Source: a bacterium EF100-94H03 bin56
GTDB taxonomy: Bacteria > Pseudomonadota > Alphaproteobacteria > SP197
Reading direction: 5' to 3'
Length of the DNA stretch: 64,000 nt
NCBI GenBank assembly: GCA_002238685.1
Contig: MPMV01000006.1
Location: 62,001-126,000, forward strand
In this document: positions 12,939 to 38,257 of the stretch, one piece after another
Position numbering within the stretch: the first letter of the stretch is position 1
Layout: every line of letters starts with the position of its first letter
Made by a program: the position numbers and the translations under genes
Notes under the pieces: model-generated
The model's database searches: none
What the model saw: only the letters and a program-made list of their open reading frames with translations
What the model was told of the DNA's origin: nothing

Positions 12939-13063
12939 GCCTTTCACGCTCCCTTCGCGGGGCCGTGCCATTGAAGTCTATGGATGAGGGCCGGACCCTG
13001 CAATGCGGAGCCCTTGACCGGACAGACCGCCGAGGGGTTAATGCTCCACGAACGACGAGACGG

Positions 13064-13570: not shown

Positions 13571-13573
13571 GCG

Positions 13574-14548: not shown

Positions 14549-14572
14549 GTGCGGCGGGGACGCCTGCGGACC

Positions 14573-15850: not shown

Positions 15851-15937
15851 CGGGCATGTCTCGCCCGAACACACGCCGTCGGCGACCGTGTCGAAGGCCC
15901 ATTGCCGCAAGCGTGGCGGGCGCAACCGATGCAGATC

Positions 15938-17131: not shown

Positions 17132-17999
17132 CGCCGGACCCTCCCCTGCCTTCGGTTCGAGACTACAACACCTGCTCGCAGACAATCCAGACGAGTGGCG
17201 GCTCAACTCGGTTCTGAGAGGGATTGCGGGGCCCACAACCGTTGCTGGCAGAAACGACCTGCTCAACGCGCCCTCCCTACCTGCCGGCCCCTGATTTGCT
17301 TGAATTTTGTGCCAGGCACGGCCGTTCAGTAAAGTGACAATGTCAGTGGCCTGGATTGATAGCCAGCGCGCGTGGGTATCAATACCTCTGGTAGCGCCTC
17401 GAGTTCTCCTCGGCGACAGTCCCGAACATGACGGGGGAGACCGGGAATATCCATTCTCCTCTGCATCGCGATGCCAGCAGAGTCCTGGCACGTGAAAGGG
17501 ACTGGATCGCTCCGGCAATCACCAATGGCACGTCAGACCCGATGTGCCTTGATCTGGCTACAGAGAAAACAGCGTTCGCCGCCTGACGGATAGATCTGAG
17601 CACCGAAACGGCTGATGTCGGTGTCGTGAACGCCAAAGGATTTTCTGTACGACTTGAGCGCGTCGGCCCGGCCTTGGGTGAGATGGGCCAAAGGAGTGTT
17701 TCTCTCATCTTACTTGTCACTTCGAGGACATGGAAACGATGTGTTTCACAGTCCAGATGTGCATCTTGGAGAGAAAACAGCGTTGTCACGGCTGGTTTGG
17801 AAACCAAGTGCGTGGCGTACACTTCCCCGGGAACACTCATAACCTTTGTCGGCAAGCGGTGCCGACGATCGCCTCCAGAGATTTCGCCGGCTCAAGGACT
17901 GCCGTATTCTCGACCAGGCGGGAACCGGTCCTCCGGCAAACGGGATACACGAAGACCGGCACATGAACACGATTCCGGAAAGTGTACCGTGGTCAACTG
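17132..17999. other. Long gene-free stretch
   Basis: About 870 bases without a gene I can support. Frames of 60-160 codons exist on both strands but none resembles a family or has a good ribosome site. The oxygenase promoter must lie in its first part. The rest may be decayed sequence; no repeat or insertion-sequence end was recognised. Confidence 0.45.
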
Positions 18000-18035
18000 C
18001 TGGTCTCCCCTCGCCCGAATGCGGGGGGAGACCAG
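18000..18035 (-). terminator. Stem-loop after the ABC importer operon
   Basis: CTGGTCTCCCC (18000-18010) and GGGGAGACCAG (18025-18035) are perfect 11-base complements with a 14-base loop. It lies 17 bases beyond the stop of the minus-strand binding-protein gene. No clear T-run follows on the minus strand, so it may act as a terminator or as an mRNA-stabilising hairpin. Confidence 0.6.
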
Positions 18036-18051
18036 CCGGTCAACCAATCGT

Positions 18052-19212
18052 CTACATCCCCTTCAGCGGGGCATTGATGATGTCGATAAGATCCTGCCGT
18101 TCGGCAAGCAGCTTGAAGTACTTGTCACCCACCTGGATCTGATCCCACGTAATCTCCTTGGGGAACTGTCCCTGATTGGCAGCCTCCGTGAACAGTTCTT
18201 CGTTCGCGGTCCCGAAGTAGGTGGTGGAATCCGGATCGAAGTAGGTACTCCACGCGTCCTCGAACAACGCGAAGTGGTTGAACTTGGCAAGCGCCGTCAT
18301 CGTGGCTTCCGGCGTCAACAGACCGCCTGTTGCAGCCTTGAGACTTTCACCAACGATTGCAAGGAGCCGATCCGGATCCTCATAGAGGTACCTGGTCGTC
18401 CGGAACCAAACCGCATAGAGCCTGATTGCCGTCTCCTCGTTCTCATCGAGCCACTCCTGCAGGGCGGCAAAGGTGCCGAACGCAGTCGGGAACAGATCAG
18501 AAGAGCCGGCGATCACAAACTGTCCCTCGAGTTCCGGCGCACTTACCAATCGAACCGACTGCGGCAGGGAACCGAAGTAATAGTCACCCTCTCCATGAAT
18601 GAACCCCAGTGCCGATTTCGTCTCGTCCGGGAACGGGATGATCGTGATATCGTCAAGTGTCAAACCGCCCTTCGCGAGCATGAGCTGCATGTTCGCTTTC
18701 TGAATCTCGGGCGTCACGGACCAGGACGAACCCTTGAGAGACTGCGCAAAAGAGGTCAGCGCTGCCCGGACATCGCCACCATTTTCTTCAAGAAACTGAT
18801 TGTAGGTTGGACGCTCGGGCTCGCCGTCCTTCAGGCGACCGATAGGAACGAAGCCCTTGAAGACCTGGTTGATCATGAAATCGCGCAGGTTCGGAAGTTC
18901 GCCGATTGCCGGCAGAACGCAGGTCGGGCATGACGCCGCTATGTCTACGTCCCCGCGGGCAAGCTTGCGCCAGGAGAACTGCTCGGGAGTGGTGATGATG
19001 GAAATGTCCAGTCCGAACTCCCTGTCAACACCGAGTTCCTTTGCCACGTCAAAAAACTTGAAGTCGTAATATGGCTGGGTCTCGATATTGACTTTCGTCA
19101 GCCCTTCCGAATCATCCGCAAACAATGGCGATCCAAAAGCGGCAACTCCGAGCACCGCGGCAAGGCACGCGGCTGTGAACCCGCGTCTCGCACTACAAAA
19201 CCAGCTGTTCAT
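18052..19212 (-). CDS. ABC importer substrate-binding protein (NitT/TauT, NMT1-like)
   Basis: 386 residues from ATG 19212, preceded by AAGGAGGAGGATATC. A signal peptide (MNSWFCSARRGFTAACLAAV, cleavage near SPLFA-DD) is followed by the NMT1-like solute-binding fold. This family feeds NitT/TauT importers for sulfonates, pyrimidines, taurine and similar compounds. It is the last gene of a three-gene minus-strand operon that is divergent from the dimethylformamidase-type operon at 21440. Import of that operon's substrate is the natural inference. Confidence 0.85.
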   Translation of the reverse strand: MNSWFCSARRGFTAACLAAVLGVAAFGSPLFADDSEGLTKVNIETQPYYDFKFFDVAKELGVDREFGLDISIITTPEQFSWRKLARGDVDIAASCPTCVLPAIGELPNLRDFMINQVFKGFVPIGRLKDGEPERPTYNQFLEENGGDVRAALTSFAQSLKGSSWSVTPEIQKANMQLMLAKGGLTLDDITIIPFPDETKSALGFIHGEGDYYFGSLPQSVRLVSAPELEGQFVIAGSSDLFPTAFGTFAALQEWLDENEETAIRLYAVWFRTTRYLYEDPDRLLAIVGESLKAATGGLLTPEATMTALAKFNHFALFEDAWSTYFDPDSTTYFGTANEELFTEAANQGQFPKEITWDQIQVGDKYFKLLAERQDLIDIINAPLKGM

Positions 19213-19258
19213 GACTGATATCCTCCTCCTTGATTGTGATTGATACTCAACAACCAAC

Positions 19259-20143
19259 CTATCCTCGTCCTCCAAGCAGCTCAGTGATAAAATCCTGTTG
19301 GGTGACCCGAGGATTCCATGGCATGCATTTGCGACCGATATATCGCAACGCGCGATCAACGATGATGGCGCAGCCGCAAAAGAGCAGGACCGACAGGACG
19401 ATACCTGCTGTATCAAGGTACTGGCCCCGGACGATCATGAAGTACCCGAGCCCCTCGCTTGAACTTGAAAACTCTGCCGCGACATCCAGGCCCCAGGCAG
19501 CGATCAGACCGAAACGGACACCCAGAAGTATTTCCGGAACTATCGAAGGAAGAACGACCGTGCGGTAAACGTCTATCCGGCTGGCACCGCAGGTCAATGC
19601 CGCCCGCACGAAGATCCGCGGAACATTTCGTACTGCCTCGATCGTCGTGAAGCTCAGGATGAGGAACACACCCAGAGCCACCAGAGCGACCTGTGGCATG
19701 AGGCCGATCCCGAACCATAGTACGAAGAGGGGAATCAAGGCAAAGATGGGTACTGGCCTGATCGTGTCCAGGGTAAGTTCGAACAGTTCTCTCGCCAACC
19801 TGCTGAAGCCGAACAGCAATCCGATAAAAATTCCGGCAACCGATCCAATGAACGCGCCCATCGCCACCATTTGAATGGAAACCCAAACCGCGACCAGAAG
19901 TTCCCGCCAGAGTAATGTCACCCGTTCCAATATGGTTTCCGGATGCGGAATGAAAATCCTCCCGACAATCCCGGCCTCGGCAACCGCATACCAGAGGGCA
20001 AAGAACGCCAGCGGCACGGACAAGACCAAAATCCAACGACGAATTCTTGCGGCCACACCGTCTGCGTTGGCACGGACAATCTGATGCCGCACAGGCCTGG
20101 GGCTTGCGCTGCTCTTGCCGGTCCGATTGTCCATTGCGGTCAT
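19259..20143 (-). CDS. ABC importer permease (NitT/TauT type)
   Basis: 294 residues with a hydrophilic N-terminus of about 35 residues and about six membrane segments. The cytoplasmic coupling (EAA) loop is RAALTCGASRIDVYRTVVLP. Family identity rests on this loop and on SIQMVAMGAFIGSVAG and RPVPIFALIPLFVLWFGIG, which are typical of SsuC/TauC-type permeases. The start overlaps the stop of the ATPase gene by 4 bases, so the subunits are coupled. Confidence 0.92.
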   Translation of the reverse strand: MTAMDNRTGKSSASPRPVRHQIVRANADGVAARIRRWILVLSVPLAFFALWYAVAEAGIVGRIFIPHPETILERVTLLWRELLVAVWVSIQMVAMGAFIGSVAGIFIGLLFGFSRLARELFELTLDTIRPVPIFALIPLFVLWFGIGLMPQVALVALGVFLILSFTTIEAVRNVPRIFVRAALTCGASRIDVYRTVVLPSIVPEILLGVRFGLIAAWGLDVAAEFSSSSEGLGYFMIVRGQYLDTAGIVLSVLLFCGCAIIVDRALRYIGRKCMPWNPRVTQQDFITELLGGRG

Positions 20144-20946
20144 GTTCCGGTCTCACCGTCTCGGGTCACACTGCGATTGTACTCGATGACTTCCCGGCGC
20201 ATTCCCTGAAGTTCCGGGCTGGTGCGCACCTCTTCGGTTCGGGGCCGTTCGAACGGAACCTTCGTTTCGCGCACTATGCTGTTTTCGCCCATCAGGATCA
20301 GGCGGTCGCCAAGGAAAAGTGCTTCTTCGATATCATGAGTAACGAACACGACGGTCGTCTCGCGGTTCTCCCACATTCGGAGAAACTCTTCCTGCATGCG
20401 TGCCTTTGTGATGGCATCGAGCGCGGCGAAAGGTTCGTCCATCAAGAGCACTTCGGGCTGGACCGAGAGCGCTCGAGCAACATCAACGCGTTTGCGCATG
20501 CCTCCGGAAAGCTGTGCGGGATAGTAATCTTCGCGACCGCCCAGACCCACAAGTTCGGTGAGTTCGCGCGCCTGTGTTCTGCGTTCGTCCTTCGGTAGCT
20601 TGCGGATCTTGAGGCCATACTCGATGTTCTGCAGGACCGTGTACCAGGGAAAGACCGCGTCGTCCTGGAACACCATTGCCCGGTCCGGGCCGGGGCCATG
20701 CACGACACGTCCCGAGACCTTGATTTCGCCTTCGGTGGGAGGCATGAAGCCGGCGATCAGGTTGAGCAGCGTGGTCTTGCCGCAGCCGCTGGATCCTATC
20801 AGGCAAAGAAACTCCCCAGCTTGCACATCAAGGTCGATCCCCTTGAAGACCGTGTGGTCACCGAAGGCCATCGAAACACCATCAACGCTGAGCTTGGGCA
20901 TTCCTGATTGCTGTGTTCTGTCCACGATACGCTCGCCCGCCAGCAT
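20140..20946 (-). CDS. ABC importer ATP-binding protein (NitT/TauT type)
   Basis: 268 residues. Walker A is GSSGCGKTT, the signature LSGGMRKRVDVARAL, Walker B LLMDEPFAALD and the H-loop VTHD. FQDDAVFPWYTVLQNIEYGL is typical of SsuB/TauB-like ATPases. A later start at the second Met (MPKLSVDGVSMAF) matches the family N-terminus better and may be the real one. First gene of the importer operon; the shared 490-base region upstream separates it from the divergent M24 hydrolase gene. Confidence 0.94.
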   Translation of the reverse strand: MLAGERIVDRTQQSGMPKLSVDGVSMAFGDHTVFKGIDLDVQAGEFLCLIGSSGCGKTTLLNLIAGFMPPTEGEIKVSGRVVHGPGPDRAMVFQDDAVFPWYTVLQNIEYGLKIRKLPKDERRTQARELTELVGLGGREDYYPAQLSGGMRKRVDVARALSVQPEVLLMDEPFAALDAITKARMQEEFLRMWENRETTVVFVTHDIEEALFLGDRLILMGENSIVRETKVPFERPRTEEVRTSPELQGMRREVIEYNRSVTRDGETGT

Positions 20947-21439
20947 CTAGGCGGCGGATGCGTGTGACTGATCGCTCATGGATCAGCGTTCCGCGGTGCC
21001 ATCATGAAACACGCGATCCTCCTGATTCCCTCTGTCGTTGCAGTCTAGCCTAACCGAACCTGCTTTGCTATGCGCCCACGCGCCTATGTTGTTCCGCGTG
21101 CCGGATTCCGGTTTCGGCATACGGTAATCTCATGACAATCGAAGCGCAGCAAAGGCCGCTGCCGGGTTTCGGGAACACGCGTCTCTGGACGTTGCTCTTT
21201 CGTTCACGCAAGATGATGGCGCAGATATCGGACGTTGTGGACCGGAAACCTGGTTCGCGGTGAAATGCGAAGCGGATCGAGGTGCGTTGCCGTCCTGAGG
21301 AGGAAGGCAAGGCCAACGCGAAGTGAAGCCGGCATGACGTTCCGTCGAACAGGCAGACCTGTTCACGATTCGCGGCGTGCATCCTGTCGGCCACGGTGTT
21401 GCACGTCGGAACTGAACCAGGGATCCGGGAGTGCGGTCC
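20947..21439. other. Divergent promoter region between importer and amide-hydrolysis operons
   Basis: No gene is supported. Both operons must start here. The two strands hold short open frames, none with family similarity. GGGAG at about 21428-21432 is the ribosome site for the + strand gene. No clear operator palindrome and no regulator gene was found in the neighbourhood. Confidence 0.5.
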
Positions 21440-22738
21440 ATGCATGCAGACACGCAAGAATCCGCCATTGCGGCCGAAAACACAGACATAGCAGGTCATT
21501 TGTCGAGTGTCGCCGAACGAGACCGCCGCCATGGGGCGCTGCGCGAGCAGATGAACGCATACAATCTCGATGCCCTGCTGATTGCTGCTCGAGGCGACGC
21601 CAGCTCTCGGGGTCGGCTGACCTATCTGGCAAACATCAGGAACTTCGTCGAACCATGTTCGATCATGCTGCTGCCTTTGGAGGGCGCACCCGTTCTGTTC
21701 ATGGATCCGGTGCGGATTTACGCCCTGCCGGACTGGATTCCGGATGTCCGCGCGACCGAGGACCGTGGGAGGGAACTTGCGATCTGCATGTCGGAACTGG
21801 GACTGGCCAAAAGCCGGATCGGCACCATCGGGTTCGAGGACTCGCTCACGCTCAAGGACTGGCGAAGCCTTTCGAAAGGTATGCCCAATGCCGTGTTTCA
21901 TCCTGCTGACAGTATCTACGAGGCTGCGACCTGCAGAAAATCGAAGGAGGAAGTTTCCGCACTGCGCCACTCCGCGGCGATTGTCAGACGTGCCGCCGAC
22001 GCGCTGGAGGGGTTGCTTCGTCCGGGCGTCCTGCCGGTCGAACTGATTGCCGAGGCTCATCGTTCCCTACGCCTGGACGGTTGTGCCGATGCGGCCGTGG
22101 CGTTCTCGCGCCGTCCGTTCCAGGGCCTCGGCTGCAGAGCGGGCGGTTGGTTGATCGGCGGGGCGGGCCCCGACCCTGCCCCCCTGGCTCCCCCCGACCC
22201 CCACTGTGTCGTGGCGGGAGGTTGGTTGATCGGCGGGACGGCCCCTGACCCTGCCCCACTGGCTCGCGACGACCTGATCGTTATCGAGATGGATGTTGCC
22301 GGACCGGAGGGTTACTGGGTGGAGATTCGTCGCCGTTACCGGTTTTCCGCGTTTCCTGATGATGAGCGCCGCTTTTGGGATATGCGGTGCGAGGCATTCG
22401 ATAGGGCCTTCGCGCTGATGAAACCAGGCGTTGACAGTGCCGAGCTTGAGCAGGCAATCAACGAGGTCTATCGCCGCAACGGCTACTCGAACCACGGACA
22501 AGTCAGCCTCCACGCACATGGTACAGGCGTGAACGCGGTGGAAGCTCCGACTTGCCCTGGCGCAGCGCGCGTGCTGGAGGCCGGCATGGCGATCGTGTTG
22601 CATCCGCTGCTGTGGCTCGAACGCGAAGAATCGCGGGCACTGAGCGATCTTTCGCCCGTCGATGCGGTGGTGATCACCGACTCGGGACCGATTCGCCTCG
22701 TGGACGGGCATGACGAGTTGAGCGTCGTGGATGCCTGA
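21440..22738 (+). CDS. M24-fold (Xaa-Pro peptidase/creatinase type) hydrolase with altered metal site
   Basis: 432 residues from ATG 21440 with GGGAG upstream. The N-terminal creatinase/prolidase domain (about residues 15-170) is followed by the pita-bread domain. In true M24 peptidases two Asp, one His and two Glu bind metal. Here the first strand reads IVIEMDV, the second WVEIRR, the His motif HAHGTGVNAVEAP is kept, but the usual Glu-Pro is LHPLLW. The metal site is thus probably lost or changed, as in creatinase-type enzymes. Residues about 234-283 contain a 25-residue imperfect tandem repeat (AGGWLIGGAGPDPAPLA / AGGWLIGGTAPDPAPLA). The stop overlaps the next start by 8 bases. Confidence 0.82.
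   Translation: MHADTQESAIAAENTDIAGHLSSVAERDRRHGALREQMNAYNLDALLIAARGDASSRGRLTYLANIRNFVEPCSIMLLPLEGAPVLFMDPVRIYALPDWIPDVRATEDRGRELAICMSELGLAKSRIGTIGFEDSLTLKDWRSLSKGMPNAVFHPADSIYEAATCRKSKEEVSALRHSAAIVRRAADALEGLLRPGVLPVELIAEAHRSLRLDGCADAAVAFSRRPFQGLGCRAGGWLIGGAGPDPAPLAPPDPHCVVAGGWLIGGTAPDPAPLARDDLIVIEMDVAGPEGYWVEIRRRYRFSAFPDDERRFWDMRCEAFDRAFALMKPGVDSAELEQAINEVYRRNGYSNHGQVSLHAHGTGVNAVEAPTCPGAARVLEAGMAIVLHPLLWLEREESRALSDLSPVDAVVITDSGPIRLVDGHDELSVVDA
22139..22288 (+). repeat. 75-base imperfect tandem duplication inside the M24 gene
   Basis: Copy 1 is 22139-22213, copy 2 is 22214-22288. The first 51 bases of each agree closely; the last 24 agree much less, with copy 1 turned into runs of C. The length is a multiple of three, so the frame is kept. 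The same design appears in livM and ppx in this window. Confidence 0.85.
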
Positions 22739-24980
22739 TGACCGGGAGTGCCGCCGAGTCCCCTGGCGCGGTCCTTTGCGAAAGGACGTGATTGGCTATT
22801 GCCAGGAGATATCGGTTGCCTCGGGGGATGAGTTACAGGTGAAAGTCAGCTGCGCGTTGTCACACTTTGACGCAGATGTGGTCCGTCTCCGTCATGGCGT
22901 TGAGGTCGGGCCAGGAGTCAGGGAATCGATCCATCCCTCATCGGCGAGTGGCCGGTACCCCGGTCGCCAGCAGCCGATCAATCCAGGTTCGTTCATGGAA
23001 GTTTGCCTTCCGCGTGCATTGATTCCGGTTGCGTCGCTCAGCTGTAGCACGTGGATACAGCCAACCGCGCCTTGCCATCATGGCTGGCAGGGCATCGTCT
23101 CGAGATGGTGTGAAGCCACAGGTTCGGGATTCGCGGTGCTCCTCGCAGATGCTGGTGATCTTGAACTTTGGGTGGGCGACGGAAACACCGAGCCCGACCG
23201 GGTACGTTCGGGTATCCCCGTCCTGGCGAACCAGTGGACGTTTGTCGCTGTCAGCGTGGATTGTGACAGCGGGCATGCTGTGTTGTTGCAGAGGCCGGCA
23301 CGAATATGGCCCGGCGCCGACTCGTCGGTGACACTTCACGCTTCACTGGCCAGCCGCGCGATCGGAGGCGAGTCTGTGCCGCTCCTCGTTGCCGCCATCG
23401 GGGGTGGCGCGGCGCCTTGTTATCATTTTGACGGCAAGATCGAAGCGCCGAGGCTTGCAGGAAAAGCCCTGACGGTTGCGGAACACGAAACCCAGATGGA
23501 AGTGGCCACAGGGAAGATGCCTCGGGACTGCCTGGCTGCCGCCTGGGATTTTGCCTCGGGAATGTCCAGCCGACTGGTGACGGATCTCTCCCCCAACGGA
23601 CTTCACGGAGTCCTCGTGAACCGGCCGGCTCGCGCCGTAACCGGCCATCGCTGGACCGGTCACCAGACGGATTGGAACCAGGCACGCGAACACTACGCCG
23701 CCATTCACTTCCACTCCGACGATCTGGAGGACGCCGGCTGGGATACGGATCTGGTCGTGCCGATCGACGACACCTATCCGTCCGGGGTGTATGCCGTACG
23801 CATCAGGGCAGGTGAATGCGAGGACAGAATTCCATTTGCTGTACGGCCCAGCGATAGCGCTCCCCGGGTTCGGCTGGCTGTGCTTCTGCCGACCCTGACG
23901 TACCAAGCGTATGCCAATTCCCAAGTATTTGGCGGCCCGACGGCGAAAATCAGGCAAGCAGAGGACGACTTCGTATCCCGGCACGGCCTCCTCAGTCTTT
24001 ACGACAAGCACCGCGACGGCAGTCCGGTCTACTACGCGTCCCGCCTTGTGCCGAACACGATACGACCTGCGTACTGTGCGCAGAACATAGGGGCGCCCGC
24101 CCGACTCAGCGCGGATCTCTGTCTGATCGACTGGCTCATGGAGCAGGACATCGCACATGATGTGATTACCGACGAGGACATCCACCGCGAAGGAGCCGCA
24201 CTGCTGCGCCCCTACCGAGCAGTCGTGACCGGATCCCACCCTGAATACGCAACCGATGCCATGTGGACGGCATGGCAGGAGTACCTCGACCAAGGCGGCA
24301 GTGCCATCTACCTCGGAGGAAACGGATACTATTGGGTTACGAGTAGAGACCCGGATCATCACGGCATCATCGAGGTGCGCCGGGGGGAGAGCGGGAGCCG
24401 CACTCAGAGCGCGCTTCCAGGCGAATACCACCATAGTTCCTCAGGCGAGCTCGGTGGCCTCTGGCGCTTCCGCGGCCGCACGACGCAGTCTCTCTTCGGT
24501 GTGGGCATGACAGCCTGGGGCAGCGGAAAGGGGTGCGGGTACCGTCGCCTGCCGGCCAGCCGCGATCCTCGGGCATCGTTCATCTTCGATGGCATCGACA
24601 ACAATGAGATCATCGGAGACTTCGGTCTGATTCTCGGCGCCGCCGCGGGCTACGAAATGGATCGACTGGACCATGAACTGGGCACACCGCCGCACACACT
24701 CCTGTTGGCGACGTCGGCCGGTCTGCATTCGCCGACCTACCTGCCAACGGTCGAGGAGATCATGGACATGGACGCCCCGAAGATCGACGACGCGATTTCC
24801 CGGTGTGTGCGCGCAGACATGGTGTTCTTCGAGACGGGCCGTGGAGGCGCGGTCTTTTCGACCGGGTCCGTCGCGTGGGTCGGCAGCCTGTCGCACAACG
24901 ACTACGACAACAACGTTTCGACCATCACGCGAAATGTCGTGGAGAGGTTCGCCTCGGGAGTGCCGTTTGCTGCGGTGTAG
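22731..24980 (+). CDS. N,N-dimethylformamidase-type large subunit, paralogue 1
   Basis: 749 residues. N-terminal region IGYCQEISVASGDELQVKVS is the family's opening motif; a LamG-like beta-sandwich follows (about residues 100-300) and the catalytic domain covers about 320-740. Dimethylformamidase hydrolyses N,N-dimethylformamide to dimethylamine and formate using a mononuclear iron held by two Tyr and one Glu. Candidates here are Tyr394 (TYQAYANS), Tyr424 (LYDKHRDG) and Glu505 (GSHPEY). The spacing Tyr-Tyr is 30 residues, 11 shorter than in paralogue 2, while Tyr-Glu is 81 in both. The substrate probably differs from paralogue 2. Confidence 0.88.
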   Translation: MPDDRECRRVPWRGPLRKDVIGYCQEISVASGDELQVKVSCALSHFDADVVRLRHGVEVGPGVRESIHPSSASGRYPGRQQPINPGSFMEVCLPRALIPVASLSCSTWIQPTAPCHHGWQGIVSRWCEATGSGFAVLLADAGDLELWVGDGNTEPDRVRSGIPVLANQWTFVAVSVDCDSGHAVLLQRPARIWPGADSSVTLHASLASRAIGGESVPLLVAAIGGGAAPCYHFDGKIEAPRLAGKALTVAEHETQMEVATGKMPRDCLAAAWDFASGMSSRLVTDLSPNGLHGVLVNRPARAVTGHRWTGHQTDWNQAREHYAAIHFHSDDLEDAGWDTDLVVPIDDTYPSGVYAVRIRAGECEDRIPFAVRPSDSAPRVRLAVLLPTLTYQAYANSQVFGGPTAKIRQAEDDFVSRHGLLSLYDKHRDGSPVYYASRLVPNTIRPAYCAQNIGAPARLSADLCLIDWLMEQDIAHDVITDEDIHREGAALLRPYRAVVTGSHPEYATDAMWTAWQEYLDQGGSAIYLGGNGYYWVTSRDPDHHGIIEVRRGESGSRTQSALPGEYHHSSSGELGGLWRFRGRTTQSLFGVGMTAWGSGKGCGYRRLPASRDPRASFIFDGIDNNEIIGDFGLILGAAAGYEMDRLDHELGTPPHTLLLATSAGLHSPTYLPTVEEIMDMDAPKIDDAISRCVRADMVFFETGRGGAVFSTGSVAWVGSLSHNDYDNNVSTITRNVVERFASGVPFAAV

Positions 24981-25184
24981 GCGCGAAAGAGGGCCTGCCC
25001 CGGGCAGCGCCGGAAATGTTCGGCTGGATGCAGCTGTGTCAACTGCATTCTCCCGGCCGGTATCGTCTGCCCGCCGGCACTTTCGGTCGTTCCAACCGAA
25101 CCCGAACGGCGACCACGCGCGACAGGAGGCTTGTGCCATGCGCCGACCGGCCTGGCTGGTCCCGCTTCTCGAAGGATATCCGCC

Positions 25185-27455
25185 ATGACCGCACCGCCTC
25201 TACCTGATTGGGCACGCACGACAATTATCGGTTACAGCGACCGCATTTCCGTGAAAGCCGGCGAGCGGATTGACTTCAAAGTGAGCTGCGAGGACGACGC
25301 GCCGGCCTTTCGTGCCGGGATCCTGCGCGTGATCTGTGGAGACCATCACCCGGACGGTCCCGGGCTCAAGCTCGAGCCGGTAGAGGTATCGATGGCAGGC
25401 GAGTATCCGGCATGCCGTCAGCCGATTCATGCCGGATCCTGTGTCGTGGTGCCCGGTACACCCGATCTGGGCGCCCTGCCCGGCTTCACGGTACTTGCTC
25501 TGATCTGGCCGACGTTGCCGGACCGCGGGCCGCAAGCCATTCTCTCCCAGTGGCTGGACGAAACCGGTTGCGGGTTCATGCTGCACATCGACACCAGGGG
25601 GCACCTTGCAGCGACTCTCGGAGATGGACAAGGTTCATGCGAGACGGTTCGCAGCCGTCATGTACTGGAACCACGCACCTGGTACCTTGTTGCGGCGACC
25701 TACGATTGCACCACGAATGTCATTCAACTCCACAAGGAGCGGCTTTACGCCTGGCCTGGTGCCCTGACGCGCGATTGCGTGACTGCCGTGACGTCGACAC
25801 CCATCGGTTGTCCTCGCGTACCGATGGTGATCGCCGGAAACTGTCTTTCGGCCGAGGTTCCGGGCCAGCTGATTGGCGCCCACTTCAATGGAAAGATCGA
25901 CAGCCCCCGCTTGGCCAAGTGTCCGCTCGACCGGCTGGAAATGAACCTGATGCTGCGCGAACCGCTCGATGCCGAGATCGAGCATTGCGTACTGGCCGCC
26001 TGGGATTTCTCCAGGGGCATCCAATCGGACTCGGTCACCGACATTTCGCCCAACAACCATCATGGCGTGACGGTCAACCTGCCGGCGCGCGCCATGACCG
26101 GACACAACTGGACAGGGGAGATCATGGACTGGCAGGCAGCGCCCGAGCAGTACGGAGCCATACACTTCCACGAGGACGATCTCTACGATGCCGGTTGGGC
26201 GACCAGTTTCACACTTGACGTGCCCGTCGACCTGCGCAGCGGAATCTATGCCGCGCGCGTCGAGACGCAGAGCGGACGCGACCACATCCCCTTTGTCGTG
26301 CGTCCCCGCAGCGGTCGACCTACGGCCGATGTCTGCTTCCTGTTCTCGAGCGCCACCTACATGGCCTATGCGAACTCGCACAAGAACGTGGACGCGCCGA
26401 CAGGCCGCGAGTTCGAATGCGGCAGTATGCTCGAGTTGAGGACGCACGACCTTTTCCTGAACGCTCATCGGGAATACGGCTACTCAACCTATGACACGCA
26501 CAGGGACGGCAGCGGCGTCTGCTACACCTCGCGCCTCCGGCCAATTCTCGACATGCGCCCTGACAGCCATGTTGGTCAGGATGCACGCTGGAACTTCACG
26601 GCCGACACCCACATCACGGACTGGCTCGAGGTCGGGGATTACACGTATGACGTGATCACCGACGAGGATCTGCATGACGAGGGGCTGGCGTTGATCTCGC
26701 CCTACCGCGTGCTTATCTCCGGCACGCATCCGGAGTACACCTCGCTTGCCATGTGGCGGGCCCTCAGCACCTACAGGGACCTTGGCGGACGGCTCATGTA
26801 CCTGGGCGGCAACGGATTCTACTGGCGTGTCGCCTATCACCCCGATCTGCCCGGCGTACTGGAAGTCCGCCGCGCAGAGAACGGGCCGCGCGGCTGGGCT
26901 GCCGAGCCCGGCGAGTACTATCACAGCTTCACCGGCGAATACGGCGGGCTTTGGCGCTACCTGGGCCGTCCTCCACAGGCACTGGTCGGAGTCGGATTCT
27001 CAGCGGCCGGTTTCGACGTGTCATCCTACTACCGGCGACAGCCGGGAAGTTTCGATCAGCGCGCACGATTCATTTTCGAAGGGATAGGTGATGAGGAGCT
27101 GATCGGCGATTTCGGAGCGGCGGGCGGCGGAGCGGCCGGCTGGGAGATCGACATTCATGATGACAGGTTGCAGGCGCCCCCCAACACGCTGGTCGTTGCC
27201 TCGTCGGAAAATCATTCCAACGCCTACGTCACCACTCCCGAGGATCCGGAAGGATGTTTCCTCCCGCTTGATGGTGTGCAGGATCCCAAGGCGCGCGCCG
27301 ACATGGTATTCTTCGAATGTCCCAACGGTGGTGCCGTGTTTTCGACCGGCTCGATCGCGTGGGGACCCGCGCTGTCGTACAACGGCTACAACAACAATGT
27401 CTCGCGAATCACACGCAATGTGCTCGACCGGTTCCTCGATCCGTCCTCTTTCTAG
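25185..27455 (+). CDS. N,N-dimethylformamidase-type large subunit, paralogue 2
   Basis: 756 residues from ATG 25185, preceded by GAAGGATA; a longer frame from 25131 is less likely. Same architecture as paralogue 1: IGYSDRISVKAGERIDFKVS, LamG-like sandwich, catalytic domain. Candidate iron ligands are Tyr395 (TYMAYANS), Tyr436 (TYDTHRDG) and Glu517 (GTHPEY). Spacings of 41 and 81 equal those I recall for the Paracoccus enzyme (Tyr399, Tyr440, Glu521). It is therefore the better candidate for a true formamidase/amidase. The 204-base gap from paralogue 1 holds no other gene. Substrate unproven. Confidence 0.9.
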   Translation: MTAPPLPDWARTTIIGYSDRISVKAGERIDFKVSCEDDAPAFRAGILRVICGDHHPDGPGLKLEPVEVSMAGEYPACRQPIHAGSCVVVPGTPDLGALPGFTVLALIWPTLPDRGPQAILSQWLDETGCGFMLHIDTRGHLAATLGDGQGSCETVRSRHVLEPRTWYLVAATYDCTTNVIQLHKERLYAWPGALTRDCVTAVTSTPIGCPRVPMVIAGNCLSAEVPGQLIGAHFNGKIDSPRLAKCPLDRLEMNLMLREPLDAEIEHCVLAAWDFSRGIQSDSVTDISPNNHHGVTVNLPARAMTGHNWTGEIMDWQAAPEQYGAIHFHEDDLYDAGWATSFTLDVPVDLRSGIYAARVETQSGRDHIPFVVRPRSGRPTADVCFLFSSATYMAYANSHKNVDAPTGREFECGSMLELRTHDLFLNAHREYGYSTYDTHRDGSGVCYTSRLRPILDMRPDSHVGQDARWNFTADTHITDWLEVGDYTYDVITDEDLHDEGLALISPYRVLISGTHPEYTSLAMWRALSTYRDLGGRLMYLGGNGFYWRVAYHPDLPGVLEVRRAENGPRGWAAEPGEYYHSFTGEYGGLWRYLGRPPQALVGVGFSAAGFDVSSYYRRQPGSFDQRARFIFEGIGDEELIGDFGAAGGGAAGWEIDIHDDRLQAPPNTLVVASSENHSNAYVTTPEDPEGCFLPLDGVQDPKARADMVFFECPNGGAVFSTGSIAWGPALSYNGYNNNVSRITRNVLDRFLDPSSF

Positions 27456-27497
27456 GCGACATGGTGTTGGCCTGGTTAACCGGCGCGATCCCTAGGG

Positions 27498-27815
27498 GTG
27501 TTTGTGGTGCACAGGAAAGGCCCCGCCTATGACCGGGCCCTGGCGCAAGAGTTCCGTCGTCGTCCCTACGGGCGCCACAGCCCGGCGCTGCAACACCTGC
27601 TCAACACGTTTCGGTTGAATGCCGGAAAACCCTCCTACGTCCTGGTATGCCGGCAGCCGGGGCGAGAATGGTTGCTGGCAACCCTGGGAGAGCACCGTGG
27701 CGATCCGATCACGATTGTGGACAACCAGGTCTTTCACACGCGCGAGGAGGCGGAGTGGATGCGCTTCCGGTTACGCTGGAAAGCGGCGACAGGTGAAGAC
27801 CCCGAAACCTACTGA
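27498..27815 (+). CDS. Dimethylformamidase-type small subunit
   Basis: About 105 residues; the frame opens at GTG 27498, and GTG 27504 or 27507 fit the TAGGGG ribosome-like site as well. The motifs RPYGRHSPALQHLLNTFR, EWLLATL and FHTREEAEWMRFRLRW parallel the small subunit of dimethylformamidase (in outline: FGYRKHSP.LQ...N.FR, a middle strand, and a C-terminal EEA helix). It directly follows large-subunit paralogue 2. Only one small subunit serves two large ones here. Assignment rests on remembered family pattern plus position. Confidence 0.72.
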   Translation: MFVVHRKGPAYDRALAQEFRRRPYGRHSPALQHLLNTFRLNAGKPSYVLVCRQPGREWLLATLGEHRGDPITIVDNQVFHTREEAEWMRFRLRWKAATGEDPETY

Positions 27816-27966
27816 CCTGAACTGCCGCGGCGAATGCCCGATCGCCAATCTGGCGTAACCGGACAGCAATTGGATATACTGGCAAGCAGAGGTGGAATAG
27901 GGTGCTCGTGGGCTTGATCGCAGGTGCCTGCGGCATATCACGACAAGGTACCGGGAGGACGAACTG

Positions 27967-28338
27967 ATGATTACGAAGCACAGGTTCAACGAAAGCGAAC
28001 TCAAGCGTGTGGTTGTGCGCGGTGGCGAGTACGTCGACTGGTTGCAGATGGCAATTCACGAGCCAAGTTGTTCCGCTGCCTTCCAGGAGTTCAGACCGGA
28101 TGAGAATCTTGGCTACTGGGTGTTCTGGTATGACCAGGTCCACTTTGCCCTCAAGGGCAGAGCCAAGTGTATCTATCGAGTGCCGCCGACTTACGACGAG
28201 GAGCACGAACTCGAGGTGGGAGAAGGCGACCTTTACCTCCTGCCCATCGGTTACCAGGCACGCTGGGAAGTAATCGGCGACGAGCCTTACCGTACGCTCT
28301 TCGTCAATATGCCCAACCCCAAATACTTCGAATTCTAG
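27967..28338 (+). CDS. Small cupin-like protein A of the amide operon
   Basis: 123 residues, single cupin-like beta-barrel. FQEFRPDENLGYWVFWYDQV, CIYRVPPTYDEEHELEV, GDLYLLPIGYQARWEVIGDE are shared with the second small cupin at 29278. Classical metal-binding His-x-His is absent, so a metal site is doubtful. It may bind a small ligand or act as an isomerase or regulator; no function can be assigned. A GGGAGG lies 5-10 bases before the ATG. Confidence 0.8.
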   Translation: MITKHRFNESELKRVVVRGGEYVDWLQMAIHEPSCSAAFQEFRPDENLGYWVFWYDQVHFALKGRAKCIYRVPPTYDEEHELEVGEGDLYLLPIGYQARWEVIGDEPYRTLFVNMPNPKYFEF

Positions 28339-28348
28339 GGAGGTACAG

Positions 28349-29125
28349 ATGGGCAAGCTCGACGGCAAGACCGCGCTTGTGACCGGCGGCAGCCGGGGAC
28401 TCGGGGCCGGCATTGCCCTGGCCTTCGCCAATGAAGGGGCCAATGTCGCCGTCAACTACGTCAAGCGCAAGGACAAGGCTGATGAAGTAGTCGCAGCGAT
28501 ACGCGCGATGGGTCGCCGCGCCATTGCCGTTGAGGCCGACTGTACGCGCGAGAACGACGTTGAACGAATGGTCGATGCGGTCCTTGGAGAGTTCGGCGAG
28601 ATTCGGATTCTGATGAACAACGCGGGCATCCTGACCCAGATGCGCTTCATCGACATGCCGCTGGCGGCCTGGGAGGAGATGATGGACTCGCACCTGCGCT
28701 CACATTTCCTGGTCACCAAGGCCTGCCTGCCCTCCATGTTGAAGCTCAGTCCTATGAACGGCGAGCGGCGCGCAGCCAAGATCATCACCATGAGTTCGGG
28801 TATCGGCCAGAAAGGCGGCGCCGGCGGCGCTACCATTGTCCATTACGTGACGGCCAAGGCCGGCATCATCGGCTTCACCAAGGCGCTGGCCGGCGAACTG
28901 GCGCCCCTCATCACGGTGAACGCCATCTCGCCTGGAACCCATCCTACCGATATCCTGGGCGACCTTACCGAGGAGTGGAAGCGCGAGAAGGAAAAGCAGT
29001 TCCTGCTCGGTTTCGGCACGGTCGAGGATGTCGCGCTGACGGCGGCGTTCATCGCCTCGCCGGATTCCGACTACTACACCGGCCAGGTGCTCATGCCCAA
29101 TGGCGGCGACGTGCTGAACGGTTGA
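28349..29125 (+). CDS. Short-chain dehydrogenase/reductase (FabG-like)
   Basis: 258 residues. NAD(P) motif VTGGSRGLGAGIA (about residues 11-23), NNAG, catalytic Ser in MSSGIGQKG and YVTAK (Tyr-x-x-x-Lys). The C-terminus NAISPGTHPTDI and GGDVLNG fit the classical SDR family. It would oxidise or reduce an alcohol/ketone group. It starts 11 bases after cupin A, with GGGAGG in front, and is followed by cupin B, so it belongs to the amide operon. Substrate unknown. Confidence 0.92.
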   Translation: MGKLDGKTALVTGGSRGLGAGIALAFANEGANVAVNYVKRKDKADEVVAAIRAMGRRAIAVEADCTRENDVERMVDAVLGEFGEIRILMNNAGILTQMRFIDMPLAAWEEMMDSHLRSHFLVTKACLPSMLKLSPMNGERRAAKIITMSSGIGQKGGAGGATIVHYVTAKAGIIGFTKALAGELAPLITVNAISPGTHPTDILGDLTEEWKREKEKQFLLGFGTVEDVALTAAFIASPDSDYYTGQVLMPNGGDVLNG

Positions 29126-29277
29126 CGATGGCGCAGGAGGCCATTTCCTGAGGTCCCGCGGCGGCGGACGTCATCTTCGTGCGGCCGTTCGGGCCAACTG
29201 TTCTTCGGCGAACCTCCGTGTGGGGCTGTCCCCGATCATCTCGGCCACCAGTATCTGCGATGAGGCGAGAGCGAACC

Positions 29278-29703
29278 ATGACCGACCATACCAAGATCCA
29301 GGTGCACCGGTACGACAGGGACCGAATGCAGCGTTTCGCTGCCTGGGCCGGCAAGACCGCACCGTGGCTCAGCGGCGACATCGATACCCCGACGTGCTAT
29401 GCTTCCTTTGAAGAATTTCGGCCGGAAGAACCGGCCGGCGACTGGTTCTACTGGTACGACGAGGTGGACTACGGCATCAGCGGGGAATGTGAGTGCATCT
29501 TCCGGTCCCCGCCAAATTTCGACGTCGAGCACCGCATGTATCTCAAGGCCGGCGATCTCTTCTTCATTCGTATCGGTACCATAGCCCGTTTCGAGGTGAT
29601 CGGTGACGAGCCGTTTGTCCACCTCATCGTCCAGATGCCCCGCCCGCCCTATACCGCCGAGGAGGGCAGGCCGTCATTCACCTCCGACAACCCTGCAGGA
29701 TGA
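29278..29703 (+). CDS. Small cupin-like protein B of the amide operon
   Basis: 141 residues from ATG 29278 (MTDHTKIQVHRYD). Clearly a sister of cupin A: FEEFRPEEPAGDWFYWYDEV, CIFRSPPNFDVEHRMYL, GDLFFIRIGTIARFEVIGDE, followed by a longer C-terminal tail. The His-x-His metal motif is again missing. Two related cupins flanking one dehydrogenase suggest a heteromeric protein or two successive steps. Function not known. Confidence 0.8.
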   Translation: MTDHTKIQVHRYDRDRMQRFAAWAGKTAPWLSGDIDTPTCYASFEEFRPEEPAGDWFYWYDEVDYGISGECECIFRSPPNFDVEHRMYLKAGDLFFIRIGTIARFEVIGDEPFVHLIVQMPRPPYTAEEGRPSFTSDNPAG

Positions 29704-30254
29704 TCCGGGTTCCAGACAGGTAGTGTTCATCGTCTTGACGCTGGACATCTGAATCCTGGACAGCCTGAGCATACAGGCGGTGCCCAGTAACGACGCGACT
29801 TGCGAGAAGACAGGCTGATGACACGGATGGTTGAGCCCATAGCGGCCTGCGATTTGTGCATGACTTCCGGTCCGGTGTGGTGGCATGGCAGATGCGGAGA
29901 GCATCAGCCGGTGCCGTGGCGAGCGGCGCGCACATTCCCGGCGCCTCTCGACAATCTCTGTTGAGCGCACCATCCAGCAAGGTCGCAACCGTCCACGCGA
30001 AATGCCGTAGTCGACGAGTTCGTTGCATGGAGACGGAGATTCTCAAGGACGGCGATTGTGTGTGGCAACGACACGGTCTCCCCGCTCTACCGTCATGTCA
30101 CGGCCGACCGGACGAGGGATGGACCAGGTCGAAATCTGCGACCCGGGAACGGAAGATGGCGTCGTGCCCTTTCATCTGTCCCTGCAACATACCGGCGTCT
30201 GTCCGGTTCGGGGTCTGCCAACCGTGTCAGGCGGGCTGGATTCGGTCAAGGGGG
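29704..30254. other. Gene-free stretch
   Basis: About 550 bases between convergent transcription units. No frame resembles a known protein, and no hairpin with a T-run was found at either operon end. Long frames here on + are antisense to the hydrolase gene or have no ribosome site. Confidence 0.45.
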
Positions 30255-31130
30255 TCAGGGTTGCGCGTGATGCAGGGCCAGGAACTCCAGGATCAGGTGC
30301 TGGACATCCGGGTGCCAGGAGAGGTGGTGCTTGGTGGCGAGGAAGTCCGGACGGCGGTAGACGATCGAGGTGCTGGAGGGGCGGCCCTTCATGAAGGCTC
30401 CACAATCACCCTTGAGGTAGATGGACTGGAACCACGGATCCCCGGCACCCAGCAACGCCAGCACGGGTTCGGTCGATGGCGCGTCCAGCCCTCGATACTC
30501 GTTCCAGCCGGCATGGCAGGTCCAGCCCTCGATGATGCGGGCGTTGACCGGTTCTCCCGTCACCGTCGCTGTCGTGGTTCCCCCCTCACTGAATCCCCAC
30601 AGAAAGATATTGTCAGGATCAACCCAGGCGAGACGCCGCGCCTGACTGATGGCCAGATTGGCCTCGGCCTGCCGCCAGCCCAGAACCGCTCGATGGAGTC
30701 CACCGATGTGACGCGCCGCATCACAGCTCCTGGGCTTGTTCTCGCGCGCGAAACTGTCCGGCATGATGACTGCGTAGCCGGCCTCGCCAAGCAATCGCGC
30801 CGCGTCGTGGCTGATGCGACCGAGTCCGGCGCAGCCGTGCAGGTAGATGACGGTGGGATGCGGGGAAAGAGTCCTCTCCAGACGCGAGTCAATGTCCTCG
30901 ATCCAGCCGCGGATCAGGCCTGACTCGTCTGGCACAATGACGAAGGCTCGCTGCCAGGTGCGCTGCAGATCCGCGTCGTCGAGCGTCGCATTGAGCGGTC
31001 CCGGCAGCACGAGGAGGAGAGCGAACACGACAACGGCTGCCATCTCCCGTGCCGCACGCACCGGATTCCAGGGCACGGGTTCCTGCAACGAAACAAGGCT
31101 GGACCTCCTTGCGGGATGGCAGCGGGTCAT
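30255..31130 (-). CDS. Exported alpha/beta hydrolase (dienelactone hydrolase-like)
   Basis: 291 residues from ATG 31130, which overlaps the stop of the ABC ATPase and has GAGGAGG upstream. A basic N-terminus is followed by a hydrophobic signal segment (MAAVVVFALLLVLPGPLNA). Motifs: oxyanion loop YLHGCAGLG, nucleophile elbow GFSEGG, acid GAGDPW and a late His in HLSWHPDVQH. It probably cleaves an ester or amide in the periplasm. As the last gene of a peptide-importer operon it may prepare or process the imported substrate. Confidence 0.82.
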   Translation of the reverse strand: MTRCHPARRSSLVSLQEPVPWNPVRAAREMAAVVVFALLLVLPGPLNATLDDADLQRTWQRAFVIVPDESGLIRGWIEDIDSRLERTLSPHPTVIYLHGCAGLGRISHDAARLLGEAGYAVIMPDSFARENKPRSCDAARHIGGLHRAVLGWRQAEANLAISQARRLAWVDPDNIFLWGFSEGGTTTATVTGEPVNARIIEGWTCHAGWNEYRGLDAPSTEPVLALLGAGDPWFQSIYLKGDCGAFMKGRPSSTSIVYRRPDFLATKHHLSWHPDVQHLILEFLALHHAQP

Positions 31131-32053
31131 GATCGGGCAACCTCCTCGGCACGATGGCAGGCAGCGTACCCATTTCCCACCAGGCGCAACTCCGGTTCCT
31201 CCGCGTGGCAGCGATCGATACTCAGGGGGCAACGCCGGGCCAGGGCGCAGCCTTCAGGCGAGAGATCTCCGGGCACGCCGTCGAGGCGAAAGTCCTCCTC
31301 GTCGCCCAACGCGCGCGAGTAGGGGTGGCAGGGTCGATCGTGAAAGCGTCGCGCCGAATCCACCTCGACAAAGCGGCCGGCATACATGACTGCGATGCGG
31401 TGTGAGACGTAACGCGTTGCCGCCAGGTCGTGGGAAATGAAGAGGGCGGCAAAGCGGTGTTCGGCCTGAAGGTCGATGATGAGATTCAGCACCTGTGTGC
31501 GCATGGAGATATCCAGTGCATTGACTGCCTCATCGAAGACAATGAAACGCGGGCGGGTGATGAGTGCGCGGGCGATGGCAATGCGCTGGCGTTGCCCACC
31601 GGATACCTCGTGCGGGAACCGCCGGGCGAAGCCTGGATCGAGACCCACCAGTTCGAGCATCCGGGCCACCCGGGCGTGGCGCTGCGGGTCCGACTTGCGA
31701 CCCTGGATGACCAGGGGCTCCGCGACCGAGTGGCCGATCTTCAGTCGGGGATTGAGCGCCCACTCCGGGTGTTGCAGCACCACGGCGCGAACGCCGGGCG
31801 GCAGACGGGATCCCGTTCCGAGAACGAGCCCCTCGAAAGTCACTTCGCCGGTGGTCGGGGTGAGGAGGCCAAGGCACAGGCGGCCGAGCGTGGTCTTTCC
31901 GGAACCCGATTCACCGACCAGCCCCACGGTCTCCCCGGAGGCGATGTCGAGATCGACGCCATCCACCGCCCGGTTCGTGTGACGATCCCAGAAGGGCCCG
32001 GTCGCATAGGTCAGGGAGATTCCACGCAAGGTCACGACGGTTTCGGAGGCCAT
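31127..32053 (-). CDS. Peptide-type ABC importer ATP-binding protein (DppF/OppF-like)
   Basis: 308 residues from ATG 32053. Walker A GESGSGKTT, signature SGGQRQRIAIARAL, Walker B FIVFDEAVNALD, H-loop ISHD, and the C-terminal oligopeptide-transporter tail with CxxRCPLSIDRC, a likely iron-sulfur ligand set. It energises the importer with the DppD-like partner. Odd: Walker B ends in Glu-Ala-Val instead of Glu-Pro-Thr/Val. ATGA overlap with the downstream hydrolase. Confidence 0.92.
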   Translation of the reverse strand: MASETVVTLRGISLTYATGPFWDRHTNRAVDGVDLDIASGETVGLVGESGSGKTTLGRLCLGLLTPTTGEVTFEGLVLGTGSRLPPGVRAVVLQHPEWALNPRLKIGHSVAEPLVIQGRKSDPQRHARVARMLELVGLDPGFARRFPHEVSGGQRQRIAIARALITRPRFIVFDEAVNALDISMRTQVLNLIIDLQAEHRFAALFISHDLAATRYVSHRIAVMYAGRFVEVDSARRFHDRPCHPYSRALGDEEDFRLDGVPGDLSPEGCALARRCPLSIDRCHAEEPELRLVGNGYAACHRAEEVARS

Positions 32054-32057
32054 CGGC

Positions 32058-34896: not shown

Positions 34897-34987
34897 GGGG
34901 ATTCATTGCGCCGGCGTCGCCGATTCGACGTCCGAACCAGGTAGAAAGCGAGAAACCAGGGGCGTCCCGCGCTCAAGGCTGGACCGA

Positions 34988-36550: not shown

Positions 36551-36615
36551 GACAGTGACACCTCGACGGTCGCTGAATTCAAGCGTGACACGCTCCACCA
36601 AGTGCGTCAACGCGT

Positions 36616-38067: not shown

Positions 38068-38257
38068 ACCCTCCCCCGCGGCGGTCTGACAGCATTGTGG
38101 TCCCGGCTCGAGCGGAAGAACAAGCGACGTCTCCAGTTGCGACGAGGATCGTCACGATGGTGGAAGCAACAGATCGCCGTGTACCTGGAAGAAGACTGAT
38201 GGAACGCGCAAGCCAGCCTTGGCTGTCGCTCCGTCTCCTCCATACGTGAGCCCCGTT

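What the first reader, a model, noticed from the sequence alone, without database searches (positions are those of the whole stretch)
18052..29703. Possible undescribed amide-degradation system: importer plus two dimethylformamidase-type enzymes
A three-gene NitT/TauT importer is divergent from an operon with an M24-fold hydrolase, two dimethylformamidase large subunits, one small subunit, an SDR and two sister cupins. Dimethylformamidases are known as isolated two-subunit enzymes; I do not know of one in such an operon with two paralogues and two cupins. Observed: gene content, overlaps and order. Known: large/small subunit family and the importer family. Inferred: one pathway that imports an N-substituted amide or formamide, hydrolyses it, and oxidises/reduces the product with the SDR.
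Basis: partly seen in the sequence, partly recalled or inferred. Interest (0 to 1): 0.78.

Follow-up and report, generated by a model that had tools for sequence, protein, structure and literature searches.

The report
Acquired operon with mixed amide-splitting enzyme
This bacterium carries, in a stretch of DNA that is absent at the same site in three of its close relatives, a set of genes that is predicted to import an unknown amide compound and likely splits it with two different, predicted iron-binding enzyme subunits that would share one small partner; it matters because its relatives hold many enzymes of this kind, which likely act on still unknown substrates.

Summary
The 105-aa gene is a dimethylformamidase (DMFase) small-subunit relative (profile hit to 6lvb_B at 9.5e-7; fold match). 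Both large subunits keep the Fe ligands, catalytic His and N547 of DMFase but lack F693, which narrows the DMF pocket, and score nearly as well against an N-acyl-beta-amino-acid acylase, so DMF is an unlikely substrate. DMFase-type genes do not stand alone: ABC importer genes lie beside the large subunit in 6 of 12 plasmid loci opened. The exact block is not conserved: in 90 other regions no binding-protein, permease or cupin relative and one weak M24 were found by tblastn, though ATPase and SDR relatives occur. It lies in a ~20.7-kb segment absent at that site in three congeners, and the operon's composition is odd. New: large subunits of two deep lineages with one small subunit, order-wide expansion of the family, and conserved arrays of one small and two or three different large genes in relatives. 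Both cupins lack cupin metal ligands; the M24 protein lacks most M24 ligands. New variant of a known kind; substrate unknown.

The parts
18052..19212 (-). substrate-binding protein of a NitT/TauT-type importer (NMT1/THI5-like), divergent
   Evidence: Pfam PF09084 22.1 bits vs cut-off 20.5; no PDB hit at E<=0.1; no match at 1e-12 in the other 375 of 376 class genomes, up to 5 candidates scored per genome. Start codon (19212 or 19215, or the longer ORF to 19416) unproven.
19259..20143 (-). importer permease
   Evidence: PF00528 E 2.9e-24; best NCBIfam kin SaoP/TauC/SsuC, all below cut-off
20140..20946 (-). importer ATPase
   Evidence: PF00005 E 1.9e-32; ntrCD 247.8 bits vs cut-off 291.8
21431..22738 (+). 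M24/creatinase-fold hydrolase without most M24 metal ligands
   Evidence: PF00557 E 1.9e-16, PF01321 E 8.9e-6; ligand positions read off the alignment
22731..24980 (+). LG1, dimethylformamidase-type large subunit
   Evidence: PF20254 E 1.1e-84; 6lvb_A E 2.1e-133; Fe ligands kept
25185..27455 (+). LG2, dimethylformamidase-type large subunit of another lineage
   Evidence: PF20254 E 3.5e-99; 6lvb_A E 2.6e-162; tree
27498..27815 (+). SM, dimethylformamidase-type small subunit
   Evidence: profile vs 6lvb_B E 9.5e-7; hhalign to DmfA1 probability 95.7; Foldseek ranks 1-3 are DMFase small chains, TM 0.66-0.69 by query length
27967..28338 (+). CUP1, small cupin without the cupin metal ligands
   Evidence: model m6e7ddd4fff34 matches cupins; alignment; 4 relatives at E<=1e-3 in about 5.8 billion proteins, one of them a 72-aa piece
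28349..29125 (+). short-chain dehydrogenase/reductase
   Evidence: PF13561 E 1.7e-48
29278..29703 (+). CUP2, sister cupin, also without metal ligands
   Evidence: 43% identical to CUP1; weak EutQ similarity E 0.0017, below cut-off
17581..38243 (.). segment absent at this site in congener G010; operon plus a peptide-type importer with amidase
   Evidence: blastn junction 17580|38244 in L155; gene order in L154, L155, L156; tetranucleotide outlier over the operon

Best explanation
The block is a likely acquired catabolic operon that is predicted to take up a small nitrogen compound through a NitT/TauT-type importer and to split an N-substituted amide, likely bulkier than dimethylformamide, with a predicted iron-dependent dimethylformamidase-type hydrolase whose two different large subunits would share the single small subunit. 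Shown here: gene content and order, intact Fe-ligand and catalytic positions in both large subunits, small-subunit family membership, absence of the segment at this site in three congeners, odd composition of the operon. Inferred: that the genes are co-transcribed, that the metal is Fe(III), that SM activates both LG1 and LG2, that the M24 protein makes or pre-cleaves the amide substrate (the logic of ectoine breakdown, where an M24-family hydrolase yields an N-acetyl amine that a deacetylase then cleaves; recalled), that the SDR oxidises or reduces the released product, and that the two metal-less cupins bind rather than oxidise a ligand. The substrate is unknown; an N-acyl amine or amino acid is preferred over DMF.
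For: Fe ligands Y399, Y440 and E521 present in 111 of 111 large subunits aligned, H519 in 109 of 111, N547 in 108 of 111; F693 not kept in LG1 (M) or LG2 (G). In Paracoccus DMFase, Y440A, E521A and H519A are inactive, F693 of the neighbouring large subunit constricts the pocket, and the large subunit alone is inactive (PMC7686228). LG2 scores 545 bits against DMFase and 517 against N-acetyl-(R)-beta-phenylalanine acylase; LG1 449 and 443. SM membership. SM fused to a large subunit in L014 and on one ORF with it in L055, L085, L124, L128. Importers beside large subunits elsewhere and an NMT1-type protein near the large subunit in 6 loci of one family cluster (one representative tested). Acquisition; composition further from the own-genome profile than 43 of 43 own 10-kb pieces for 18052-28051.
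Against: No activity, expression or metal data. The block is not seen in relatives. Gaps of 204, 151 and about 150 nt within the plus-strand run leave room for separate promoters. SM lies downstream of the large gene only in the window: 54 of 55 tblastn SM hits in the 91 regions lie upstream on the same strand, so it may serve LG2 only. The contig-length fields of the nearest LG1 and LG2 relatives do not match; LG2 copies at 99-100% are listed with contigs of 4.7 and 4.1 Mb, for which the LG1 list shows no counterpart. This gives no support for a travelling LG1-LG2 pair, though the field names only the longest contig of a cluster. The absent segment could be loss in the three congeners. The composition test used one genome and 43 overlapping pieces; the piece 19704-29703 ranked above 42 of 43. 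F693 lies in a loosely aligned loop.
Confidence: 0.55

Rival explanations
1. LG1 and LG2 are two separate homo-oligomeric enzymes with different substrates; SM belongs to LG2, and LG1 needs no small subunit or borrows one of the others encoded in the genome.
For: LG1 and LG2 sit in two deep, well supported lineages; SM is 42 nt behind LG2; many large-subunit regions have no SM: 34 of 91 had no SM profile hit, some of them cut by contig ends.
Against: In relatives, 11 of 14 arrays of two or more large genes go with one SM gene; the other 3 run into a contig end on the SM side. No SM next to LG1.
Confidence: 0.5
2. A bona fide dimethylformamide or formamide degradation operon.
For: Large and small subunits are both relatives of DMFase; LG1 falls on the DmfA2 side of the tree.
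Against: F693 constriction lost; the solved relatives include an N-acyl-beta-amino-acid acylase; a related dmfA1-dmfA2 pair on pAMI5 has not been found linked to DMF use (PMC4543880, passages).
Confidence: 0.12
3. A ureide or purine salvage island: the imported compound is an allantoin-type ureide or hydantoin, and the operon feeds the allantoicase/ureidoglycolate lyase pathway next door.
For: Ureidoglycolate lyase (12965-13570), allantoicase (13574-14548) and a DAO-family oxidase (14549-15850) stand just left; hydantoinase A/B genes stand near some other large subunits of the order.
Against: The ureide genes are shared with congeners G011 and G009, which lack the operon at this site, so they are not part of the same acquisition.
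Confidence: 0.15
4. A chance gathering: separately acquired genes that landed together and are not one pathway.
For: Apart from ATPase and SDR relatives, the partners do not recur beside large subunits, bar one weak M24 and, by blastp at 1e-3, one weak permease; M24 and the binding protein have no match in the other 375 of 376 class genomes at the thresholds used, with only up to 4 or 5 candidates scored per genome.
Against: Seven genes in one direction, one overlap and several short gaps, divergent from a complete importer; the sister-cupin pair flanks the SDR.
Confidence: 0.15

Closest known systems
N,N-dimethylformamidase DmfA1/DmfA2 (Paracoccus; PDB 6lvb)
   Same: Same large-subunit family, Fe ligands, catalytic His, small-subunit family and fold
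   Different: Two non-identical large genes for one small gene; small gene downstream; F693 missing; importer, M24, SDR and cupins in the block
N-acetyl-(R)-beta-phenylalanine acylase (PDB 8huy)
   Same: Same large-subunit family, E 8.1e-154 to LG2, with the Tyr, Tyr, His and Glu positions aligned
   Different: Activity of LG1/LG2 unknown; the window has a small-subunit gene, while the acylase entry's molecule name lists only acylase chains A and B
Plasmid importer + small + large + SDR gene sets: Variovorax CP063167, Agrobacterium larrymoorei NZ_CP124735
   Same: ABC importer genes, small gene and large gene, with an SDR directly after
   Different: Other importer classes; one large gene; no M24 gene or cupin pair listed in the stretch
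Ectoine degradation DoeA/DoeB (pathway recalled; NCBIfam DoeA)
   Same: M24-family hydrolase paired with an amidohydrolase
   Different: M24 scores 26.6 bits against a DoeA cut-off of 613, so not a member; different amidohydrolase

Membership tests
Dimethylformamidase-type enzyme | large subunit with DMFA2_C domain | tested here: met
   PF20254 E 1.1e-84 and 3.5e-99
Dimethylformamidase-type enzyme | Tyr-Tyr-Glu iron ligands and catalytic His | tested here: met
   Y399, Y440, E521, H519 kept in LG1 and LG2
Dimethylformamidase-type enzyme | small subunit of the DmfA1 family | tested here: met
Dimethylformamidase sensu stricto | F693 pocket constriction | tested here: not met
   M in LG1, G in LG2 at the aligned column; the loop aligns loosely, and only 36 of 111 rows have F
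Dimethylformamidase sensu stricto | dmfA1-dmfA2 order, one large gene | tested here: not met
Dimethylformamidase sensu stricto | hydrolyses DMF | not testable with these tools
   needs assay
N-acetyl-(R)-beta-phenylalanine acylase | same large-subunit family and catalytic positions | tested here: met
   activity itself not testable here
NitT/TauT-type ABC importer | binding protein, permease and ATPase of the class | tested here: met
   the binding protein passes its Pfam cut-off only narrowly
M24 metallopeptidase | five metal ligands D, D, H, E, E | tested here: not met
   aligned residues E, E, H, H, V against the 1pv9 prolidase (identity of the ligands recalled)
Metal-binding cupin | His-His-Glu...His motif | tested here: not met
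   no His at the motif-1 ligand positions, A at the motif-2 His in both cupins (motif recalled)
Ectoine hydrolase DoeA | NCBIfam cut-off | tested here: not met
   26.6 vs 613 bits

The most novel reading that the evidence does not exclude
LG1 and LG2 form one mixed enzyme, an LG1-LG2 dimer with SM, whose two pockets are each completed by a loop of the other, non-identical large subunit; this hetero-large-subunit design arose several times in one bacterial order, as the conserved one-small, two-or-three-large arrays suggest, and is how that order diversified its amide diet.
Probability: 0.25. Interest if true: 0.72.

Novelty: new variant of a known kind. Interest (0 to 1): 0.48.

Why it matters
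Of this large enzyme family only DMFase and one N-acyl-beta-amino-acid acylase turned up among solved structures, yet the window's genome has 11 matches to the family and 15 of 16 genomes of its order, its own included, have 3 to 10 strong matches each. The operon gives a testable entry point: a binding protein that can reveal the substrate, and large subunits whose pairing with one small subunit can be tested directly. If large subunits mix, the neighbour-contributed pocket of this family would be a way to build new specificities.

Tried and rejected
Rejected: SM as chance ORF (profile, fold and fusion evidence). Rejected: LG1/LG2 as a recent duplication (43% identical, and in separate supported lineages; that tree is a quick LG+G4 one with warnings on long branches). 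Rejected: large subunits as dead paralogues (active-site positions kept). Not settled: whether SM serves LG1.

Led nowhere: LG1 and cupin in viral contigs (none confirmed); CUP1 on plasmids (none); binding protein on plasmids (two weak partial matches); M24 on plasmids (11 weak records; the one opened, Rhodococcus erythropolis, lists no large subunit nearby); tRNA genes in the window (none). Paper searches: searches list no paper whose title or abstract start is about multi-large-subunit arrays; of the listed papers I opened three (PMC7686228, parts 1 and 2 of 3; PMC4543880 and PMC10308929, passages only); one search was badly aimed and proves nothing; one search found no paper, one search listed ectoine papers that I did not open. 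Rfam was not searched. Direct repeats at the junctions: only 7-9 nt matches, no target-site duplication shown.

Mended on re-check: a count of SM position made on whole ORFs had flagged fused or over-long ORFs as downstream; a recount on tblastn bodies gives 54 of 55 upstream.
Full report
OBSERVATION. The ATPase-permease and M24-LG1 pairs overlap by 4 and 8 nt. LG1 and LG2 carry DMFA2_C (E 1.1e-84 and 3.5e-99).

SMALL SUBUNIT. SM has no Pfam or NCBIfam hit. A profile of SM and ten relatives from named genome contigs (A2) hits the DMFase small subunit 6lvb_B at 9.5e-7, with the next hit at 0.28. A wider HMM built from 56 hits finds DmfA1 of pAMI2 at 2.6e-11 in the ORF set, and hhalign gives probability 95.7. 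The AlphaFold model (pLDDT 85.5) ranks DMFase small chains 1-3, TM 0.66-0.69 by query length. SM and a large subunit are fused in L014 and lie on one ORF in L055, L085, L124 and L128.

ACTIVE SITES. Aligned to DmfA2 of pAMI2, Y399, Y440 and E521 are present in 111 of 111 rows and H519 in 109 of 111; N547 in 108 of 111. LG1 and LG2 keep all five. The Paracoccus enzyme paper (PMC7686228; parts 1 and 2 of 3 of the text seen) reports the 2-Tyr-1-Glu iron, inactivity of Y440A, E521A and H519A, inactivity of the large subunit without the small one, and F693 of the neighbouring large subunit as a constriction of the pocket. At that column LG1 has M and LG2 has G, and only 36 of 111 rows have F; the loop aligns loosely. 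LG1 and LG2 score nearly as well against N-acetyl-(R)-beta-phenylalanine acylase as against DMFase. I infer a bulkier amide than DMF.

OTHER GENES. The M24 protein matches PF00557, but the prolidase ligands D, D, H, E, E align with E, E, H, H, V (ligand identities recalled). CUP1 models as a cupin (best of five models at pLDDT 81.3, the others 41-64; Foldseek), but both cupins lack the His ligands of the cupin motifs (motif recalled). CUP1 has 4 relatives among about 5.8 billion proteins, one of them a 72-aa piece. Of 385 class genomes, the window's and three others match CUP1 at 1e-8; the three weak relatives lie beside a TRAP transporter (two genomes of one genus) or overlap a carbon-nitrogen hydrolase gene (one genome) (Pfam was run on one of the two TRAP loci).

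IS THE BLOCK CONSERVED? Whole-order search with LG2: 15 of 16 genomes match at 1e-100, with 108 matches including the window's two. The tree has 112 rows (recounted): the window pair, 98 rows from these genomes, 2 distant own-genome relatives and 10 named loci; so 8 of the 108 matches were not fetched or fell under the length limit. tblastn at 1e-4 over the 90 other regions found no relative of the binding protein, the permease or the cupins, one of M24 (L071), ATPase relatives in 24 regions and SDR relatives in 32; one search gave the same on 97 loci, some of which are the same contig under two names. blastp at 1e-3 added one weak permease in L014. SM was found by HMM in 57 of 91 regions. LG1 has no match at 1e-190 in the other 384 of 385 class genomes, M24 none at 1e-25 and the binding protein none at 1e-12 in the other 375 of 376; these searches scored only up to 2, 4 and 5 candidates per genome, and the genomes were drawn from a larger class. 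In the protein collection LG1 has relatives at 87, 84, 74, 69 and 59%, then two from Nocardioides agariphilus at 52 and 48%; LG2, own-like copies aside, at 93, 82, 77, 76 and 63%. The contig-length fields of the two lists do not match, also for LG2 copies of 99-100% on contigs of 4.7 and 4.1 Mb, so co-location is unproven.

ISLAND. In congener G010, window 17580 and 38244 are adjacent, with 9 nt of overlap in the alignments (L155). In G011 and G009 the DAO gene (window end 15850) is followed directly by the LysR gene of window 38258-39184. So about 20.7 kb is absent at this site in three of nine congeners; the other six gave no near-identical flank match among the listed rows (a capped list) and say nothing. 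The piece 18052-28051 is further from the own-genome tetranucleotide profile than 43 of 43 own 10-kb pieces, 19704-29703 than 42 of 43, and the right half 28201-38200 than 32 of 43. I read the operon as acquired; loss in the three others is not excluded.

SETTING OF THE FAMILY. I opened 12 annotated plasmid loci with a large subunit, of 84 records found with LG2 and 83 with LG1. ABC importer genes lie in the opened stretch in 6 of 12 and an SDR directly after the large gene in 2 of 12; a small gene lies directly upstream in 10 of 12, of which 5 were tested with the SM HMM and all 5 matched. Importer-linked DMFase-type sets thus recur; the three papers I opened do not describe them in the parts I saw, apart from the dmfA1-dmfA2 pairs themselves. 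In one family cluster an NMT1/THI5-like protein recurs near the large gene in 6 loci (one representative by Pfam).

ARRAYS. Beside the window, 14 regions hold two or more large genes in a row. One SM gene stands with 11 of them; the other 3 reach a contig end on the SM side. SM lies upstream of the large gene in 54 of 55 tblastn hits, the window being the exception. In the tree, first-position genes form one clade (10 rows), middle ones another (6 rows) and last ones a third (12 rows), each at full FastTree support. A second array type is shared by G005 and G015. These are old, co-inherited, non-identical large genes with one small gene. The window's pair is a third, independent case: LG1 falls on the DmfA2 side, LG2 among the order's other members. 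This is why I keep the mixed-enzyme reading open, at 0.25.

VERDICT. Observation confirmed; interpretation partly supported; new variant of a known kind. Mechanism beyond amide hydrolysis is inference, amide hydrolysis itself is predicted from conserved positions, and the substrate is unknown.

Noticed in passing
window 22139-22274: The M24 gene holds a 61-nt direct repeat 75 nt apart, 87% identical, so the protein repeats a Gly/Pro-rich stretch; whether relatives have it was not checked.
   Followed up: partly
window 30255-38067: The right half of the absent segment codes for a peptide/nickel-type ABC importer, a protein with a weak dienelactone-hydrolase match and an amidase-signature amidase: a second importer-plus-amidase set.
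   Followed up: partly
window 12965-17086: Ureidoglycolate lyase, allantoicase, a DAO-family oxidase and a gamma-butyrobetaine-dioxygenase-like gene; the first three are syntenic in G011 and G009, the last is beside LysR in G010.
   Followed up: yes
L053, L059, L060, L090, L094, L097, L098, L100, L101, L102, L103: Arrays of one small-subunit gene and two or three different dimethylformamidase-type large genes, orthologous by position across genera.
   Followed up: partly
L075:9272-11581 and L109:9526-11166: Large subunits with Gln in place of the catalytic His519 but all three iron ligands kept.
   Followed up: no
L120, L127 (and L113, L121, L122, L129): Large subunit near a conserved protein of about 120 aa (no Pfam hit for the representative; in five of the six) and an NMT1/THI5-like protein; an independent large-subunit/NMT1 pairing.
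   Followed up: partly
L153:9258-10572: A relative of CUP1 overlaps a carbon-nitrogen hydrolase gene in a distant genome of the same class.
   Followed up: no
L131 and L161: AmiS/UreI-family transporter genes stand downstream of the large subunit on Paracoccus pAMI5 and a Rhodococcus plasmid.
   Followed up: no
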